Source: Pseudorhizobium banfieldiae (GTDB taxonomy: Bacteria; Pseudomonadota; Alphaproteobacteria; Rhizobiales; Rhizobiaceae). Taken from it: a stretch of DNA of 64,000 nucleotides. The notes under the pieces are model-generated. The model searched no databases and was not told the origin of the DNA. It saw only the letters and a program-made list of their open reading frames with translations. The translations under genes were made by a program, and so were the position numbers. The stretch covers positions 1,550,001-1,614,000 of the forward strand of contig NZ_FO082820.1 of assembly GCF_000967425.1 (NCBI RefSeq). The letters run 5' to 3'. Below, one piece after another: positions 42,361 through 54,799 of the stretch. The number at the start of each line of letters is the position of its first letter. Positions within the stretch are counted from its first letter, which is position 1.

Positions 42361-42404
42361 GTAGTCAAATGCAGCTCAGCTGTATCGCGATCAATTTTGA
42401 CTAC
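42361..42404. repeat. 9-bp inverted repeat at the 3' edge of the ATPase gene
   Basis: GTAGTCAAA at 42361-42369 is the exact reverse complement of TTTGACTAC at 42396-42404; the second arm overlaps the ATPase stop codon. The interior contains CAGCTCAGCTG. It may serve as terminator of the minus-strand gene or mark the end of a transferred segment. Confidence 0.5.
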
Positions 42405-43831
42405 GGGATGTTTAGAGCCTTTCGTAGACCTACATGGATCGATATATCATTTCCGATAACAAAATTGGAGTTTCTGTTCCTATATCTGAACGTGTAATGT
42501 TCACCGTTGCCAGAATTAACCACCGTTCCTATCGCACTACACTCGAAAAGCGCTCGTAAAACCGCGTACATCTCATCGATATCGTACTTTAGGTGGCGAG
42601 CCTTCAACTCTAGATCCCGTGTTGAAATCCTTCGCTTGCCGAACATCCCAATAAACTCAATCCAGTCCTTTGGTGGCCTAGATTTCGTATAACCTTCAAG
42701 TTCATCCTCGACCTCTCCAACGAAATAATCAGTCGAATAAATTCGTGCGCCGGATAGAACAAGATTCGGCGTTAATCTCTCTCCTTCGCGCTGTACCTCT
42801 GCTATCTTTCGCATCAGGGTCAGAAAATCTCGAGGTGTATGCCTCGTCTGCTCGAGAAGGTACTTAGGCGCTGGTGTTCCAGATATCTTGAAATCGAAAA
42901 AGGCGCGAAAAAAATCTCCCCCAAAATTGGTCTTTTTATTGACCATATCCAGTAGTAGTGAACGGTCTGGATTTCTTGGATTCTGGTACCAGTCTATATA
43001 CTTACACTTATCCTGTCTTATTTTATTTTTGTTCGCTCCCGAAATACGCTCGTATAGATCGGTTCGGCAAACTATAATAAATTTTAACTTTACCCCATTC
43101 TGTTTTAATAGATCATTTAGCCTGTCGACTTCGAAAACAAGGGAGCCAAGGCTTTTGTACTGAACTGATCTGGTGGTCAGGATGTCATCCAGGCCGTCTA
43201 GCATTATTATGTGGTTAGATTCTGTCCTGCAGCTGCAAATTATTCTCTTCATATTGTGGACGAACATGGGAATATCGTTCACCTTGTCAATGCTGGCGAA
43301 ATCTTCGCTGCTCTCGAAGACATAAGGTATCGTAAGCTTGAATGTTTTCCTGGACGTGATATTCGCAATGTGTCTCAATGAACTGTTGGGCATGAAACCC
43401 ATTTGCTTTAGACTGTTGACGGTTTCGTTGTAACTCACGGCATCCGGATGCCACACACCCTCGTCCCGTGAGAGCGATTCCAATGCAATTATGAGGAGTA
43501 GCCAAGCCCAAGCATCAGGAAACTTGGCCTCGGGCTCTTGGTCACCGCGGATTATTTTCGAGAAATTTTGGAAGCTGAAATCTTCTAGTTGGTAAATAGT
43601 AGAAAAGCTGTTGTATCTATTCTGCAATTCGAGATCTAAATGGTTAACCAACGCACTTTTGCCGGCACCTTTATTGCCTAGGTACAAAAATGTCGGGCCC
43701 TCCAGTGCGCTCTTAGTTAATCCCTGTTCGTCGAAATAACCCTCCCGCAAAAGACTGGGTGCCTCCGTCCGTTCGGTCTCGGCTCGAGCAAATCCAAAGT
43801 TGATCGATCGCAAATCATAGCTTGTGTTCAT
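42401..43831 (-). CDS. P-loop ATPase resembling the Sll1717 family
   Basis: A 476-residue STAND/KAP-like NTPase. The N terminus INFGFARAETERTEAPSLLREGYFD leads into Walker A GNKGAGKS (52-59); the Walker B-like IIMLDGLDD spans 208-216, and a sensor-like FIIVCRTDLYERISG follows. The C-terminal third (SRPPKDWIEFIGMFGKRRIS onward) looks like a winged-helix region. This layout fits the Sll1717-type P-loop ATPases, which often occur in defence or mobile contexts, although no function is established. The gene is far richer in A/T and rare codons (ATA, AGA, TTA) than its surroundings, indicating recent acquisition. It stands alone, with no partner gene on its strand. Confidence 0.75.
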   Translation of the reverse strand: MNTSYDLRSINFGFARAETERTEAPSLLREGYFDEQGLTKSALEGPTFLYLGNKGAGKSALVNHLDLELQNRYNSFSTIYQLEDFSFQNFSKIIRGDQEPEAKFPDAWAWLLLIIALESLSRDEGVWHPDAVSYNETVNSLKQMGFMPNSSLRHIANITSRKTFKLTIPYVFESSEDFASIDKVNDIPMFVHNMKRIICSCRTESNHIIMLDGLDDILTTRSVQYKSLGSLVFEVDRLNDLLKQNGVKLKFIIVCRTDLYERISGANKNKIRQDKCKYIDWYQNPRNPDRSLLLDMVNKKTNFGGDFFRAFFDFKISGTPAPKYLLEQTRHTPRDFLTLMRKIAEVQREGERLTPNLVLSGARIYSTDYFVGEVEDELEGYTKSRPPKDWIEFIGMFGKRRISTRDLELKARHLKYDIDEMYAVLRALFECSAIGTVVNSGNGEHYTFRYRNRNSNFVIGNDISIHVGLRKALNIP

Positions 43832-44333: not shown

Positions 44334-47606
<3,273 letters not shown>

Positions 47607-48165: not shown

Positions 48166-49374
48166 TCAGGCGACCGCCTCGGCCGGCTGCGGCGTCTTCG
48201 CTGGCAAGGGCGGGAAGGCGAGCGCGATGGCGACAGCCCCGAGGCCGACCAGCGCGGAGCCGATGAACAGCCACTGGTAGCTGGCGAAGGCGTCGTATGC
48301 CCAGCCGCCGGCCAGCGGGCCGAAGGCCATGCCGACGGAGGAGAGCATGGTGGCGGCGCCGAAGACGGTGCCCACCACATGCGGCCCGAAATACTCCCGC
48401 GCCAGCACCGCATAGAGCGGCATGACGCCGCCATAGGTGCCGCCGAAGATCACCGCCAGCGAATAGAAGGTGGTGAGACTGTCGGCGGCGAGATAGGCGG
48501 AGATCACCGCCGCCTGGACGAGGAGGCCCGCGACCAGCACCGGCTTGACGCCGATCCGGTCGGCGAGCACGCCGAAGAGCACCCGGCCGCCGAGCCCCGC
48601 CAGGCCCTCGACGCTGTAGATGCTGACGGCGGCCATGGCCGCAATGCCGCACAGCATGGCATAGCTCACCATGTGGAAGATCGGCCCGGAATGGGCGGCA
48701 CAGCAGGCAAAGAAGGTGAAGCCGAGCACGAGGAATTGCGGCGTCAAGAGCAGGCGCGACAGCGGCTGGCGGCGGGCCTCGACCGCACTTGCCTGATCGC
48801 TCTCCGAGAGCGCCGGCGGACGGCGGATCAGGAGCGCGGTCGGCAGGAGGATCGCCCAGGCGCCGACGCCGATCATCAGCATGGCGGTGCGCCAGTCATA
48901 GGCGGAGATGAGGGTGCGGGCGAGCGGCGAGACGGTCATCGGCGCCATGCCCATGCCGGCGGAAACGAGCGAGACGGCGAGCCCGCGCTGCGTGTCGAAC
49001 CAGGTCATCACGGCGGCGATCATCGGCGCGAAGAAGGCGCTGGCGGCAAGCCCCACCAGCGTGCCATAGGCGAGCTGGAAGGAAAGCAGGCTCTCGGCGC
49101 GGCTCGCCAGCACCAGCGCCAGGCCGAGCAAGACCGAACCGATCAGCACCACGATCCGGGCGCCAAACCGGTCGGTGAGGGAGCCCCAGAGGAAGCCGCC
49201 GACGCCCATGACCAGGAAGTTCAGGGTCATGGCGGTGGAAATGCCGGCGCGCGACCAGCCGGTCTCGCTCGCCACCGGCTCCAGGAAGATCGCCAGCGAA
49301 AACATGGTGCCCGCCGCCACGCAGCCCATCAGCCCGCCGGCGGCGACAATCACCCAACGATATGCACGTGCCAT
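48166..49374 (-). CDS. MFS transporter (OFA/monocarboxylate-like)
   Basis: A 402-residue inner-membrane major facilitator with about twelve hydrophobic segments. The loop 2-3 signature GGFLWGSLTDRFGAR and the second-half equivalent GRVLFGVLADRIGVK are clear, and the overall pattern resembles the OFA/monocarboxylate group. The substrate is unknown. The start at 49374 (MARAYRWVIVAAGGLMG) has GGGAGAGGG upstream; the frame is open 150 bases further but that leader is not MFS-like. Nothing in the neighbourhood fixes its physiological role. Confidence 0.85.
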   Translation of the reverse strand: MARAYRWVIVAAGGLMGCVAAGTMFSLAIFLEPVASETGWSRAGISTAMTLNFLVMGVGGFLWGSLTDRFGARIVVLIGSVLLGLALVLASRAESLLSFQLAYGTLVGLAASAFFAPMIAAVMTWFDTQRGLAVSLVSAGMGMAPMTVSPLARTLISAYDWRTAMLMIGVGAWAILLPTALLIRRPPALSESDQASAVEARRQPLSRLLLTPQFLVLGFTFFACCAAHSGPIFHMVSYAMLCGIAAMAAVSIYSVEGLAGLGGRVLFGVLADRIGVKPVLVAGLLVQAAVISAYLAADSLTTFYSLAVIFGGTYGGVMPLYAVLAREYFGPHVVGTVFGAATMLSSVGMAFGPLAGGWAYDAFASYQWLFIGSALVGLGAVAIALAFPPLPAKTPQPAEAVA

Positions 49375-49610
49375 GACCCTCTCCCGAACAAGGCCGGCGG
49401 TGGCGCCGGCGAGGTTATATGCGGCAAGGACGGATGGGGAGAGGGGATTCCGACAGGGGGGTGGCGTATAAGGTGCGCATTCCAGCTTTACTGCTACCGA
49501 CATGCTCCAGCTTAAGTTATCCACCTGAAATTCTTGGTCCTTCCTCTACAGCACTTGATTGCCTATCAGTTCAACTGCTTCATTCACGGCTTGAGCTGAT
49601 TGGAGGGAAG

Positions 49611-52178
49611 ATGGCTGAATTGTCTGCCGTTGTCCGGCTTCGTCCCGCGCGCATTGCCCTTCTGGTCACTCCGGGGGACAAGGCGGCGGTCATCAAGTTC
49701 ATGCGTATTTGCAGCTGCATGTGGGGTGGAAAATACAACCCGATTATCCCCGTATTTCGTAAACCTCCAAAGGCTTGGGTAGCGGAGTTCCCCGGGGACG
49801 TCACGGGGCTCGAGATCGCGCGCGGTTACATTCAATTCTTTGAGCCTGACGCTTTCGTCGAGGCGCAACCCGGCCTGCTAGAAAAGGTTGGTCTCGGTTC
49901 GTTACGAGACTACATCTCGCGGGGACGCGTTCTTACATTGGATGAAGTTTTAGCACCCGAACCACATAAGGATTGGGCCGAGCTTCATCTTGGGTTACCT
50001 GTCACCGATTGTCTTGAGGACATCTATCGCACCGAACAGCGTTTTCATCAGCGCGACCCCTCTGCGGCTGTGACAATCGCAAATCCTCCTACTTCAGGTT
50101 TGGCGGAGGCAATATTCGGCGTCTATCCGGACACTGCCGGGAGCGAATATTTCTCCCGAACCTTTGATCATGTTTTCCGGCCTGAGGCGATACCGTGTTC
50201 GCCAGCGAGCTGGAAGAGAGTGCTGTTTGAGGGGGTTACCACACCGCTTTCGGCTACATCCCATTACATCAGGCCGCAAAGACTCTGGACCAATGACGCC
50301 AAGATCTTCGTCTTTGATCCCGCTCACCTGACTGATCTCATCGACGTGTGGAATTTGAGGAGCGAGCCGAATCCGTTGATACCCGTACCGATGGGATGGT
50401 TGCCAGACCTCCTGCCCGAAATCCATAGAATCATCGCTGACGAGTGTAGGCCGCTGCAGGGCAATCCCAACGGCATCATGCACTCTGCCATCCTCGAGTT
50501 CTCGCGAGGGATAGGCGACGAGGCGCGGCGAAAGGCGCTACAGCTGCTTCAGCCCGGTCTTCCGCAGTCGAAAGACGGCTTTGGAACATTGTCCGTGAAG
50601 CAGTGGCGAGACAGGATTTGGGACAAGCCCGGCGGCGGAATGATGAACCCGCCCAAGCGGATTGTCCTCGATGTCGAGGAGAAACGCGTGACGCTGGAGG
50701 TGAAGGAAACGGACTCCCAACCTTCGGCGCGCTATGAGCCCCTTCGCCCTTCGTTCGCATCGCGCTTCGGCACGTCGCAACTGAGATGGGTGAACAGCTT
50801 GCGGGTGGCAAACTATGGTCGAGCGGATATTGCGACTATTTACCCTTACAACACGTTCGACCGATCAAGGCCCCGTCTTGGCTTTGGTGTCCTCGACGTG
50901 ATGATCGGCACTGAGGGTTGGAGTTTCGGCCAAAAATACGATGGCGTCGGGGAGCATCTGCAATTCCAGACCCAGGAGACGGCCATTCTGGATTTCCTGA
51001 AACGATCAGGGATGGAGGCGCGGCTGTCTGAGCCGGGCCATATCGCAAAACAGATCCTCGACCAGCTTGGTGGCCTATGGGGTACACGTCTTATAGCGGA
51101 CTCAGAGACGCTCAAACTGATGAATGACATGGCCGGTGGTGTCCGTCGGCGTGAGAATGGTGTTGAGGAAGTTCAGGAACAGTTCGACCCCCGATCACGG
51201 CCTATCAAGGACTGGGCCGGTCTCGTCAAACGTCGCAAATCACGCTTTTATCAGGCTCTTGAGTTGGACCATTTTACCAAGGCGAGCATTGTGGTCCTCG
51301 GACTGGAGACCCAATGCACCAACTGCTTGAACCGCAATTGGGATACGGTAGACCGTTTGGGCTATTCCCTTACATGCAAACGCTGTCTGAAGTTGTACCC
51401 GTTCCCGCAGGGAGCTACAACTACCGGGCGGCTATGGACGTATCGCGTCGCGGGTCCATTTTCGGTTCAAGACTACGCGAAAGGTGCATATGGTGCCGTT
51501 CTGGCGCTGCAGACGATTAGCGAGCTGGTTTCTCATTTCCGATCAATCAACTTCGTCACCGCGGTCGAGCTTGGACTGGATGGCAGGAGGATTGAAGCGG
51601 ATTACATCGCCTTTCACCAAGCCGACGCCTTCGACAGTCAATACGATCCGAACCTGATCTTGGGTGAAGCTAAATCGTTCGGCCAAGGTGATCTAATCGA
51701 GCCTAAGGACATCGCAAGGTTGAAGGATTTGGCGCTTCGGTTCCCTGGATCCTATCTCGCCGTCTCCGTACTCAGGAACGAGTTCACCGATACAGAAAAA
51801 GCTTTGCTGCGAAAGCTTGTAAGGTGGACCCGCAAACTGGGCGTGGATGGAGGACCACGAAATCGGGTGCTTTTGCTCACCGGCTACGAACTGTTGCGCC
51901 AGTCGGAGCCCATCAGCCATACATGGAAAGAACTCGGCGGAAGGCACGCGGAGTTCTCTGACTTCCATCATACTGAATCGATACGGACTATTGCTGAAGC
52001 GAGCATCGCCATACATTTAGGTATGCCCAGCTTCGAGAGCGAAAGGCATGCCGCTTGGGGCAAGCGGCCGCGCAAGAACCCGAACGCGTTCCCTCGCATT
52101 CCCGGCCAGTGGGGGCGCACTTTGCATTCTATATCAGGGACCATCGCACCTGAGGCGCCAGGAGAAAAACAGAATTGA
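49611..52178 (+). CDS. Large unknown protein with zinc ribbon and PD-(D/E)XK nuclease signature
   Basis: An 855-residue protein I cannot assign to a named family. The N terminus (ARIALLVTPGDKAAVIKFM, then WGGKYNPIIPVFR) looks like an alpha/beta domain; the middle is mixed. C569-x2-C572 and C589-x2-C592 form a zinc ribbon. Immediately after comes a restriction-endonuclease-like core: E653 (VELGLDG), D664 (RRIEADYIAF) and E686-A-K688 (LILGEAKSF), the order and spacing of a PD-(D/E)XK site. The start at 49611 is preferred (GGAGG 4 bases upstream, MAELSAVVRLRP); the frame stays open to 49419. Base composition is lower in GC than flanking genes. It stands alone; a defence or DNA-processing nuclease is the best guess. 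Confidence 0.7.
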   Translation: MAELSAVVRLRPARIALLVTPGDKAAVIKFMRICSCMWGGKYNPIIPVFRKPPKAWVAEFPGDVTGLEIARGYIQFFEPDAFVEAQPGLLEKVGLGSLRDYISRGRVLTLDEVLAPEPHKDWAELHLGLPVTDCLEDIYRTEQRFHQRDPSAAVTIANPPTSGLAEAIFGVYPDTAGSEYFSRTFDHVFRPEAIPCSPASWKRVLFEGVTTPLSATSHYIRPQRLWTNDAKIFVFDPAHLTDLIDVWNLRSEPNPLIPVPMGWLPDLLPEIHRIIADECRPLQGNPNGIMHSAILEFSRGIGDEARRKALQLLQPGLPQSKDGFGTLSVKQWRDRIWDKPGGGMMNPPKRIVLDVEEKRVTLEVKETDSQPSARYEPLRPSFASRFGTSQLRWVNSLRVANYGRADIATIYPYNTFDRSRPRLGFGVLDVMIGTEGWSFGQKYDGVGEHLQFQTQETAILDFLKRSGMEARLSEPGHIAKQILDQLGGLWGTRLIADSETLKLMNDMAGGVRRRENGVEEVQEQFDPRSRPIKDWAGLVKRRKSRFYQALELDHFTKASIVVLGLETQCTNCLNRNWDTVDRLGYSLTCKRCLKLYPFPQGATTTGRLWTYRVAGPFSVQDYAKGAYGAVLALQTISELVSHFRSINFVTAVELGLDGRRIEADYIAFHQADAFDSQYDPNLILGEAKSFGQGDLIEPKDIARLKDLALRFPGSYLAVSVLRNEFTDTEKALLRKLVRWTRKLGVDGGPRNRVLLLTGYELLRQSEPISHTWKELGGRHAEFSDFHHTESIRTIAEASIAIHLGMPSFESERHAAWGKRPRKNPNAFPRIPGQWGRTLHSISGTIAPEAPGEKQN

Positions 52179-52346
52179 TGTTAAAGAGCACCGCTCTTCT
52201 GAATTGTTCGCCGATCTGATCGCTCGATGCCGCTGATGCGGTCCGCCATTCCTTCGGACCGTGCAAGCCGCACCGAAAGCTGGAGGAGTTCAGACCTCAG
52301 GCCTATATCGGGGCAGAGCGTAGAGCATCAGTAAGGACCACCCACC

Positions 52347-52829
52347 ATGAGCGTTGCCTTCGTCAAGGAAGAGAGTGCGGAAACGGCGGCGGAGACGTTG
52401 TTGCCGGACCGGCCGGTCTCGCCGCATCCGAACCTGGTGACGCAGGCGGGGCTGGAAGGGTTGACGCGGCAGCTGGAGGAGGCGCGGGAGGCTTACCAAA
52501 CGGCGAACGTGGTCGAGGACGTCAACGAGCGGCGGCGGCAGGCGGCGGGGCCCTTGCGGGACCTGCGCTATTTCACCGAGCGGGTGCGCACGGCGCAGGT
52601 GATGCCGGAGCCGTTGACGTCGGAAGTCGTGGCCTTCGGCAGCACGGTGACCTTTTCGCGCGAGGACGGGCGGGTCCAGCGCTACCGGATCGTCGGCGAG
52701 GACGAGGCCGATCCCAAGGCGGGCACGATCTCCTACGTGTCTCCCGTCGCCCGGCAGCTGATGGGCAAGCGGGTGGGGGACCTCGTCTCTGTCGGTGGGC
52801 AGGAGCTGGAGCTCCTTGCGATCTCCTGA
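52347..52829 (+). CDS. GreA/GreB-family transcription elongation factor homologue
   Basis: A 160-residue protein with a short N-terminal helical hairpin (NLVTQAGLEGLTRQLEEAREAYQTANVVEDVNERRRQAAGPLRDLRYF) and a C-terminal GreA/GreB FKBP-like domain (VAFGSTVTFSREDGRVQRYRIVGEDEADPKAGTISYVSPVARQLMGKRVGDLV). It binds RNA polymerase if it behaves like the family, but the coiled-coil tip residues needed for transcript cleavage are not clearly conserved, so it may be a regulatory paralogue rather than GreA proper. It follows the large unknown gene by 168 bp. Confidence 0.85.
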   Translation: MSVAFVKEESAETAAETLLPDRPVSPHPNLVTQAGLEGLTRQLEEAREAYQTANVVEDVNERRRQAAGPLRDLRYFTERVRTAQVMPEPLTSEVVAFGSTVTFSREDGRVQRYRIVGEDEADPKAGTISYVSPVARQLMGKRVGDLVSVGGQELELLAIS

Positions 52830-52953: not shown

Positions 52954-54108
52954 TCAGCTTCGGGCGCCGGCTGGAAAGGTGATGGTGGCGCAGGCGCCTC
53001 CGCCTGGTCTGCTCGTGACGGAAAACGCGGCGCCATGCGCTTCGGCAATCGCCTTTACGACCGTCAGGCCAAGGCCGGTGCCGTTGGCGCCGCGCGTATT
53101 CGTCGCCTCGCTTCGCCAGAACATGTCGAAGGAGGATTGGAGCACATCCGGAGGCATGCCTGGCCCCCGATCTTCCACGCTTATGAACGACCTGCCGGCC
53201 TCGTCGGTGCCGGTGCGGACATCGATCGGGCCGTGGTCTCCGGCATAGCGGCGGGCATTGTCGAGGAGCGCCAGCAGAGCCTGCCGGAACCGCACGGGAT
53301 CGATCGCGGCGGGTGCGGGCTGCAGGAAGGTCCGGCAGGTGAGGCCGTTTCCGGCGGACGCTTGAAAGAGGTCCACCGTGTCGGTGACCTGGGAGGCGAG
53401 GTCGGTATCGGTCAGCGGCGCCATGAAGCTCGCTGTCCCGACGAGGGAGAGCGTGTTGAGCTGCTCCACCAGGCGCGCCATGCCTTGCGTCTGCGCATAA
53501 AGCGCCTTGATGCGGTCGTGGCTCGGCTCGATCACGCCGTCGCTCATGCCTTGCAGATTGCCCTGCAGCACCGTGAGCGGGGTGCGCAATTCGTGTGCCA
53601 CGGCGCGGGTGTTGAACTTCAGCCGCCGCTCGAGGGAAGAGAGCTCGGAGGCCATGCTGTTGATGGTCGACGCCAGGGCTTCGATCTCTCGCGTCGCGCT
53701 GGGTTCGACGTCGACGAGGAAATCACCGCCCCGGATCTTCTCGGCGGCCGCCGTGAACCGGCTCAAGGGGGCGGCGATCCGGAAGGCGAAGAACACGCCG
53801 ATCAGGCTTGAAAGCAGGATCGATGCGGCCCCGAAGCCAAGGATGGCGGCGATGGGGGCGACTTCGCTCACCTCTTCCAGGCTGGGGAAGACGACGGCGA
53901 GCGCCGCCAGTGCCTCCGGATCGGGCACGAGGCCCGCGTTGAGATCGTTCCACGCGCGCTTTGCATCGGCCGGAAGGTGCTCGACGGACACGGTTTCTGC
54001 GCGATCGACGTACCATTCGACGAAGAAGTAAAGCAGCGCGATGGTGACGAACTGCGTCACCGACACGGCCGCGACCGTCAGAAAGGCGAGCGAAGGTCTT
54101 CTAGCCAT
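52954..54108 (-). CDS. Sensor histidine kinase
   Basis: Membrane kinase of 384 residues: an N-terminal membrane segment (about 9-30), a periplasmic region of about 55 residues, a second segment (about 86-110), HAMP (about 111-165), the phosphoacceptor H172 in VAHELRTPLTVLQGNL, and an ATPase domain with DNARRYAGD, EDRGPGMP and GTGLGLTVVKAI. The layout resembles BaeS/AdeS-type kinases. The start at 54108 overlaps the upstream response regulator by 8 bp; the two form one operon. The signal is unknown. Confidence 0.9.
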   Translation of the reverse strand: MARRPSLAFLTVAAVSVTQFVTIALLYFFVEWYVDRAETVSVEHLPADAKRAWNDLNAGLVPDPEALAALAVVFPSLEEVSEVAPIAAILGFGAASILLSSLIGVFFAFRIAAPLSRFTAAAEKIRGGDFLVDVEPSATREIEALASTINSMASELSSLERRLKFNTRAVAHELRTPLTVLQGNLQGMSDGVIEPSHDRIKALYAQTQGMARLVEQLNTLSLVGTASFMAPLTDTDLASQVTDTVDLFQASAGNGLTCRTFLQPAPAAIDPVRFRQALLALLDNARRYAGDHGPIDVRTGTDEAGRSFISVEDRGPGMPPDVLQSSFDMFWRSEATNTRGANGTGLGLTVVKAIAEAHGAAFSVTSRPGGGACATITFPAGARS

Positions 54109-54799
54109 TGTCGGATCTCGCAAAGCGATAACCGACGCCGCGGACGGTGGTGATGTAGCCGGGCTGGCCCTTGTCGGCGAGCTTTCGCCTGAGGTTGGCG
54201 ACGTGGGTGTCGATGGTCCGGTCAAGGGCGTCGCTGTCCGGCATGGAAGCATCCAGCAGGGAGGCGCGATCGAAGGTCCTGAACGGGAAGCGGATGAGGC
54301 ACGCCAGGAGCCGGAATTCCGTCAGCGTCAAGGAGAGACCTGTTTCCGTGCCGTCGGCGATGATCACCGCGGTATGGGAGTCCAGCCGGACCTCGATCTC
54401 GTCATGTCGGAGCACGGCCTCCGGGGCCACGCCCCTGGTGCGCTTCAGGACGGCGCCGACGCGCGCGACGACTTCCTGCGGATTGAAAGGCTTGGTGACG
54501 TAGTCGTCGGCACCGAGTTTCAGCCCGAGCAGCTTGTCGGTGTCGTCGTCCATGGCCGACACGAAGATGACGGGGACGCTCGATTCGGAGCGGATCCTGG
54601 CCAGCACGTCGAAGCCGTCCATGTCGGGCAATCCGACGTCCAGCAGGATGAGATCCGGCCGCAGCATCTTGTGGTGGGTCAAGGCTGTCCGGCCGTTTGC
54701 GGCGGCGACCGTGCGGTAGCCGCCGCGCTGCAGATAGCGATCGAGCAGCAATGCGATCTCGGCATCATCTTCAACAAGCAAAATCAGAGAAGAGAACAT
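54101..54799 (-). CDS. OmpR-family response regulator
   Basis: A 232-residue DNA-binding regulator: a receiver domain with acidic pocket ED10-12 and phosphoacceptor D54 (LILLDVGLPD), the conserved Lys in DDYVTKPFNP, and a C-terminal winged helix (LTLTEFRLLACLI, DRTIDTHVANLRRKL, VRGVGYRF). It is first in a two-gene operon with the sensor kinase. Its promoter faces away from the PAP2 phosphatase gene across a 93-bp gap, so that gene is an obvious candidate target; the link is inference. Confidence 0.93.
   Translation of the reverse strand: MFSSLILLVEDDAEIALLLDRYLQRGGYRTVAAANGRTALTHHKMLRPDLILLDVGLPDMDGFDVLARIRSESSVPVIFVSAMDDDTDKLLGLKLGADDYVTKPFNPQEVVARVGAVLKRTRGVAPEAVLRHDEIEVRLDSHTAVIIADGTETGLSLTLTEFRLLACLIRFPFRTFDRASLLDASMPDSDALDRTIDTHVANLRRKLADKGQPGYITTVRGVGYRFARSDNG

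What the first reader, a model, noticed from the sequence alone, without database searches (positions are those of the whole stretch)
49611..52178. Unassigned 855-residue protein with zinc ribbon and PD-(D/E)XK nuclease core
Seen: a CX2C-X16-CX2C ribbon (569-592) followed by E653, D664 and E686-x-K688 in the order of a restriction-like catalytic site, on a large stand-alone protein whose first 560 residues match nothing I can name. Known: PD-(D/E)XK cores with zinc ribbons occur in restriction, anti-phage and DNA-repair nucleases. Inference: a single-gene defence or DNA-processing system. Composition lower in GC than the flanking genes and placement between housekeeping-like genes fit acquisition.
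Basis: partly seen in the sequence, partly recalled or inferred. Interest (0 to 1): 0.75.

Follow-up and report, generated by a model that had tools for sequence, protein, structure and literature searches.

The report
Unnamed stand-alone bacterial defence nuclease
This gene belongs to a widespread and so far unnamed family of single proteins that look like DNA-cutting enzymes and often sit near the anti-virus genes of bacteria, so they may be a bacterial defence that has been overlooked.

Summary
The 855-residue protein (49611-52178) has a C-x2-C-x16-C-x2-C ribbon and, behind it, E662-x-D664 and E686-x-K688, all invariant in 73 of 73 full-length relatives and 175 of 175 database relatives. 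No Pfam, NCBIfam or PADLOC family matches the protein. Among 57 genomes of the genus only the window's own has the full-length gene; a close relative keeps both flanks with other DNA between them. No neighbour family occurs in more than 7 of 80 loci, yet a type I restriction domain lies within 10 kb in 6 of 49 genomes, 0.36 expected. Three viral contigs with phage structural genes carry relatives, one beside the portal gene. Best reading: a stand-alone PD-(D/E)XK-type defence nuclease without its own methylase, gated by an unknown N-terminal module.

The parts
49611..52178 (+). whole gene, 855 aa, stand-alone; stop codon included
49611..50510 (+). residues 1-300: N-terminal module with invariant R11 P12, W38-G39-G40, N43-P44-I45, P79-D80, G170, D242, W247-N248; no known family
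50511..51281 (+). residues 301-557: more variable middle region, a candidate for specificity (inference); invariant P380, N395, P412, S473, G476
51315..51386 (+). residues 569-592: zinc ribbon C569-x2-C572-x16-C589-x2-C592
51408..52046 (+). residues 600-812: PD-(D/E)XK-like core by motif order, with invariant G625, E662, D664, E686, K688 and near-invariant E729, E760
   Evidence: weak match to Mrr_cat
51594..51602 (+). E662-A-D664, catalytic motif II by position (inference)
51666..51674 (+). E686-A-K688, catalytic motif III by position (inference)
49463..52272 (.). variable segment: in the closest relative (L096) the flanks are colinear at about 92% and 89% identity, but these 2.8 kb are replaced by 3.7 kb with no BLAST match at E 1e-5

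Best explanation
It is a stand-alone anti-phage (anti-mobile-element) nuclease. The C-terminal third is a PD-(D/E)XK-type metal-dependent nuclease whose ligands are E662/D664 and E686 with K688; a zinc ribbon next to it probably helps to hold nucleic acid. The first ~560 residues form a sensor or specificity module with two strongly conserved motifs (around WGGxYNPIIP and DxxDxWNxR) that keeps the nuclease off the host chromosome and releases it on a feature of invading DNA or of infection. Since no methyltransferase or other partner recurs, self/non-self discrimination must lie in this one protein: either it reads a modification or structure of foreign DNA (as type IV enzymes do, recalled), or it is switched on by a phage-made cue. 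Shown: invariant motifs, no recurring partner, patchy distribution with other DNA at the site in a relative, deviating composition, enrichment beside restriction genes, copies in viral contigs. Inferred: fold, DNA as substrate, sensing by the N-terminal part, protection. Direct cutting of incoming DNA is my first choice; destroying both DNAs (abortive infection) is second.
For: Invariant Cys4 and E-x-D/E-x-K in 73 of 73 and 175 of 175 relatives, kept across a split at 19-23% identity. No neighbour family in more than 7 of 80 loci. HSDR_N within 10 kb in 6 of 49 genomes, 0.36 expected, Poisson P 2.4e-6; an N6_Mtase match in at least 9 of 49, 0.90 expected, P 5e-7. Among 129 near genes the most frequent Pfam families are mostly restriction families: N6_Mtase 4; Type_ISP_C, ResIII, Resolvase, AAA_21, Eco57I, Methylase_S, SWI2_SNF2, HSDR_N 3 each. 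PADLOC models matched at 1e-10: 313 for 129 near genes, 14 for 129 control genes. Full-length in 1 of 57 genus genomes; 4 of 394 family genomes match at 1e-20, the window's and one partial match included. Other DNA between intact flanks in the closest relative. GC3 0.62 against 0.80-0.89. Viral contigs: L102 with the gene next to a portal gene, L101 with portal, spanin and baseplate genes, L100 with a phage transposase, tail proteins and terminase. Plasmid copies: next to a DUF4238 gene, and within 8.4 kb of an ATP-binding protein/S8 peptidase pair, an abortive-infection gene and a PrlF-YhaV pair.
Against: No structure. No sequence match to a solved nuclease: the best PDB matches of the core have E 0.67 or worse. 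The match to Mrr_cat is weak: hhalign probability 0.8%, 6 of 199 column shuffles score as high, without realignment it covers 10 columns, and the global mode loses it. No protection data for any relative. 43 of 49 genomes have no HSDR_N within 10 kb. The near-gene scans do not tell how many of the 129 are defence genes; sulfatase (3), glyoxalase (2) and housekeeping families also occur, and no Pfam control was run. Copies are rare in phages and plasmids: 4 viral contigs, 0 of 50,697 phage records with three queries, 1 and 2 of 72,556 plasmids.
Confidence: 0.72

Rival explanations
1. Abortive-infection nuclease: the N-terminal module senses a phage protein or a nucleotide and the nuclease then destroys host and phage DNA (or RNA) alike.
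For: No recurring partner, so no recurring methylase. The N-terminal module has highly conserved motifs, more like a ligand pocket than a fast-changing DNA reader (inference).
Against: No signal-making enzyme recurs beside it.
Confidence: 0.25
2. DNA-repair or DNA-processing enzyme of the host, not defence.
For: PD-(D/E)XK nucleases also serve repair (recalled); in the window the flanks are chromosomal genes such as UvrB and a histidine kinase.
Against: Full-length in 1 of 57 genus genomes; enriched next to restriction genes; copies in viral contigs.
Confidence: 0.1
3. Part of a mobile element, for example an end-processing nuclease (TnsA-like), carried along with the element.
For: A neighbour family of 423 aa mean length that I took for integrases (identity not tested) lies in 6 of 80 loci, 5 members within 3 kb; Resolvase in 3 of 129 near genes.
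Against: No recurring transposase partner; in the window the gene fills 2,568 of the 2,810 bases of the variable segment, leaving no room for a recombinase.
Confidence: 0.08

Closest known systems
Mrr catalytic domain (PF04471), type IV restriction
   Same: Motif order D ... (Q/E)-x-K; hhalign's realignment lays D664 and K688 on the conserved Mrr D and K and runs on to the end of the domain
   Different: The match is weak (6 of 199 shuffles as high; 10 columns without realignment). Mrr has Q (22 of 24 here) where this family has E686. No zinc ribbon and no 560-residue N-terminal part in Mrr (recalled)
Shedu (SduA_C, PF14082)
   Same: Stand-alone defence protein with a PD-(D/E)XK nuclease (recalled)
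   Different: No Pfam hit; profile comparison with 19 SduA_C domains gives nothing (score 10.8)
PD-(D/E)XK systems validated by DefensePredictor (PMC13092281)
   Same: PD-(D/E)XK cores inside otherwise unrelated proteins that protect against phages (passages)
   Different: Found in E. coli. I saw passages and figure legends only, so identity with one of its predictions is not excluded
CoCoNuT / McrBC systems (PMC11090510)
   Same: Some McrC homologues combine a PD-(D/E)XK nuclease and a zinc ribbon (passages)
   Different: Those have an McrB-type GTPase partner and a DUF2357 domain; no DUF2357 match here and no recurring partner

Membership tests
PD-(D/E)XK nuclease superfamily | D ... (D/E)-x-K catalytic residues in order and conserved | tested here: met
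   D664, E686, K688 invariant in 73 of 73 and 175 of 175; 107, 106 and 107 of 107
PD-(D/E)XK nuclease superfamily | alpha-beta-beta-beta-alpha-beta core fold | not testable with these tools
   structure prediction switched off; fold inferred from motif order only
PD-(D/E)XK nuclease superfamily | metal-dependent nucleic-acid cleavage | not testable with these tools
   needs a bench assay
Mrr_cat (PF04471) | profile match over the catalytic domain | tested here: inconclusive
   no Pfam hit; hhalign score 16.3, probability 0.8%, 80 columns after realignment but 10 without; 6 of 199 shuffles as high, 0 of 199 as high and as long
Shedu (SduA_C) | SduA_C domain | tested here: not met
Classical restriction-modification | cognate DNA methyltransferase next to the nuclease | tested here: not met
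   no neighbour family in more than 7 of 80 loci; an N6_Mtase match within 10 kb in 9 of 49 genomes as far as the cut list shows, by model names parts of type I or IIG systems (inference); other methylase families were not tested genome by genome
CoCoNuT / McrBC | McrB GTPase partner and McrC DUF2357 | tested here: not met
   no DUF2357 match in the protein or relatives; no recurring partner of any kind
Anti-phage defence gene | enrichment in defence neighbourhoods | tested here: met
Anti-phage defence gene | location in a phage accessory hotspot | tested here: inconclusive
   L102: beside the portal gene, the other border not confirmed; one contig only
Anti-phage defence gene | protects cells against phages | not testable with these tools
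   needs plating assays

The most novel reading that the evidence does not exclude
The N-terminal ~300 residues are a new kind of sensor or enzyme domain, permanently welded to this one nuclease. It recognises a general sign of infection (a nucleotide, a modified base or a replication structure) through the invariant WGGxYNPIIP and DxxDxWNxR motifs, and makes the family a distinct, widespread single-protein immune system used by bacteria of many phyla and by prophages against rival phages.
Probability: 0.35. Interest if true: 0.82.

Novelty: new variant of a known kind. Interest (0 to 1): 0.62.

Why it matters
861 database proteins match the N-terminal part of one member at E 0.01 or better, relatives lie in genomes of many phyla, and the domain libraries searched have no model for the family, so catalogue-based tools would miss it. 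If it protects, it adds a single-gene nuclease without a recurring methylase whose way of sparing the host genome is unknown and lies in an uncharacterised module. Clear single-residue tests (E686, K688, the four Cys, W247/N248) are available.

Tried and rejected
Internal duplication of the two N-terminal motifs: hhalign found none. Fold by PDB sequence search with four profiles: only chance-level matches, e.g. a designed protein at 0.0045, procarboxypeptidase B at 0.057, polymerase kappa at about 0.1, core 0.67 or worse. Shedu: rejected. N-terminal module fused to another effector: not seen, but only in part examined. Of 861 hits 120 were listed; of the 118 new ones 107 are full-length with the nuclease motifs; 11 are shorter and were not aligned; the tails of 8 of them were printed and break off in or just behind the middle region. 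Proteins outside 0.55-1.75 times the query length cannot appear in that search. E. coli: no DNA match. A clean empty site was not found; the closest relative has other genes there. P2 old/tin locus: PMC9122126 (passages) places it between gpA and gpQ; in L102 the portal border is met, the other flanking protein matched neither PHROGs at 1e-8 nor phage records. The labels P2-like and Mu-like rest on PHROG matches plus gene order that I recall. Literature: four answered searches for a zinc ribbon and a nuclease in a defence setting (1, 15 of 16, 15 of 16 and 2 papers listed) show no title or abstract start that describes this family; a fifth was on P2 hotspots. I read passages of three papers and the figure-legend section of one; supplements could not be searched. 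Limits: the 49 genomes were chosen by me from 80 loci for contig length; the 129 near genes are a random draw from 260, three near-duplicate loci left out; the 129 control genes are from 14 of 20 regions asked for, all at one contig position; gene calls are simple ORF picks; PADLOC counts are of models, and one protein can match many; the scans listed 25 of 144 and 25 of 313 families.

Full report
What is there. The frame 49611-52178 (+) encodes 855 residues. Upstream, on the other strand, lie an MFS transporter gene (48166-49524) and a UvrB gene (44334-47606); downstream lie a small gene at 52347-52829 and a histidine kinase gene (52954-54252). Its GC is 0.557 and third-position GC 0.619, against 0.658-0.687 and 0.797-0.894 for these four genes.

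Known families. The protein has no Pfam match at E 5 and no PADLOC match at E 1, and no NCBIfam match at E 0.1. 53 close relatives gave scattered weak matches only (best E 0.014, in Pfam the zinc-ribbon model Phage_zn_bind_2 in 7 members), and 55 distant ones likewise (best 0.0083 in Pfam, 0.0021 in PADLOC, each in one member). The homologues listed in public protein sets are called hypothetical or uncharacterized protein or carry no name.

Conservation. A two-motif scan of genomes of 84,980 species found 159 places that encode a relative; the best 80 were kept and come from many phyla, by record titles Proteobacteria, Acidobacteria, Nitrospirae, Poribacteria, Planctomycetota, Verrucomicrobia, Chloroflexi and others. 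In the 73 of 80 that are full-length, C569, C572, C589, C592, G625, E662, D664, E686 and K688 are invariant. In 175 database proteins the same nine are 175 of 175; in 107 further ones C572 and E686 are 106 of 107 and the rest 107 of 107. E653 is E in 23 of 73, 35 of 175 and 98 of 107, so it is conserved in part of the family only. A distant branch of 762-796 residues, at 19-23% identity to the main one, keeps the Cys4, E-x-D, E-x-K, WGG, NPI and WN residues. The N-terminal part has its own invariant residues (R11 P12, W38-G40, N43-I45, P79-D80, G170, D242, W247-N248; 50 sequences).

Fold. The stretch reads like the usual order of a PD-(D/E)XK core (inference). hhalign against 24 Mrr_cat domains laid D664 on the Mrr aspartate and K688 on its lysine and ran on to the end of the domain. 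But the probability is 0.8%, 6 of 199 column shuffles score as high (0 of 199 reach both score and length), without realignment only 10 columns are aligned, and global mode loses the match. 19 SduA_C domains gave nothing. I therefore call it PD-(D/E)XK by motif, not by fold.

Distribution. Of 57 genomes of the genus only the window's own has the full-length gene; one more holds a short C-terminal piece (G023) and one a distant 763-residue paralogue (G009). Of 394 genomes of the family 4 have a match at 1e-20, the window's and one partial match included. The closest relative at this place, L096, is colinear on both sides (UvrB and MFS mostly about 92%, histidine kinase side 89%), but 49463-52272 is replaced by 3.7 kb without a match, with other ORFs. 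With the composition this points to acquisition at a variable site (inference).

Neighbours. Among 1,161 neighbour ORFs of 80 loci no family occurs in more than 7 loci; many of these loci are short. In 49 genomes (chosen from the 80 loci for contig length) an HSDR_N domain lies within 10 kb of the gene in 6, with 0.36 expected from the counts per genome (P 2.4e-6); 43 have none. An N6_Mtase match lies within 10 kb in 9, with 0.90 matches expected (P 5e-7); that list was cut, so 9 is a lower bound, and 6 of the 9 are the type I-size hits while G103 and G104 are weaker (E about 1e-13) and G092 lies at 9.9 kb. A Pfam scan of 129 of 260 near genes shows N6_Mtase (4), Type_ISP_C, ResIII, Resolvase, AAA_21, Eco57I, Methylase_S, SWI2_SNF2, HSDR_N and DEAD (3 each) and BrxL (1), but also Sulfatase (3) and Glyoxalase (2) (25 of 144 families shown). 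At E 1e-10, 313 PADLOC models match among these and 14 among 129 control genes from 14 of the same genomes; one protein can match many models.

Mobile copies. Four viral contigs carry relatives. L102 has a portal gene (phrog_68) 150 bases from the gene, on the side away from the terminase; L101 has a portal gene, with the gene between a spanin and a baseplate gene; L100 has a phage transposase, tail proteins and a terminase. By gene order as I recall it, L101 and L102 are P2-like and L100 Mu-like. In P2-like phages the locus between gpA and gpQ (portal) is a reservoir of anti-phage genes (PMC9122126, passages); for L102 the portal border is met, the gpA border is not confirmed. The fourth contig, L103, has the length of the G009 contig that holds the distant paralogue. 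On plasmids, a Photobacterium copy has a DUF4238 gene as its next annotated neighbour, a type that protected against T7 in that paper; a Bradyrhizobium copy of the distant branch lies within 8.4 kb of an ATP-binding protein/S8-peptidase pair, an abortive-infection gene and a PrlF-YhaV pair. No relative was found in 50,697 phage records with three queries.

How it likely works. Shown: one protein with an invariant metal-site motif and Cys4 ribbon, no recurring partner, in neighbourhoods enriched in restriction genes. Inferred: it cuts nucleic acid, most likely DNA, and the N-terminal 560 residues decide when or where. Without a methylase it must recognise either something foreign in the DNA or a sign of infection. 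The middle third is more variable and a candidate for specificity; the first third has such fixed motifs that a fixed ligand or partner is likely. The N-terminal part was seen only in this architecture as far as examined: 107 of 118 listed hits are full-length with the motifs, 11 are shorter.

Verdict. It is an unnamed family within a known kind (stand-alone PD-(D/E)XK defence nucleases, recalled) with an uncharacterised N-terminal module. The searches list no paper on it; supplementary tables could not be searched.

Noticed in passing
42401-43831 (-): Second low-GC gene in the same stretch (GC 0.444, third positions 0.495): a 476-residue P-loop ATPase-like protein with weak NPHP3_N/AAA matches, perhaps also acquired.
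   Followed up: partly
50220-52178 (+): A database version of this protein (P0018) is 652 aa long, starting 203 residues late and losing the conserved WGG motif.
   Followed up: partly
L096:5250-8985: At the same site the closest relative carries other ORFs (one of 347 aa looks like a patatin-type lipase by eye), so the MFS-histidine kinase interval may be a small insertion hotspot.
   Followed up: partly
L098:8523-8686: A C-terminal remnant of the gene (70% DNA identity over 164 columns) remains in another genome of the genus.
   Followed up: partly
L099:5967-8258: Distant 763-residue paralogue behind an ORF that looks like an ATP-dependent DNA ligase (by eye), on a contig of the same length as viral contig L103.
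   Followed up: partly
G097:C343 and C265; G099:C117 and C143; G067:C50: Two genomes carry two copies of the family each, and a third a second, partial match.
   Followed up: no
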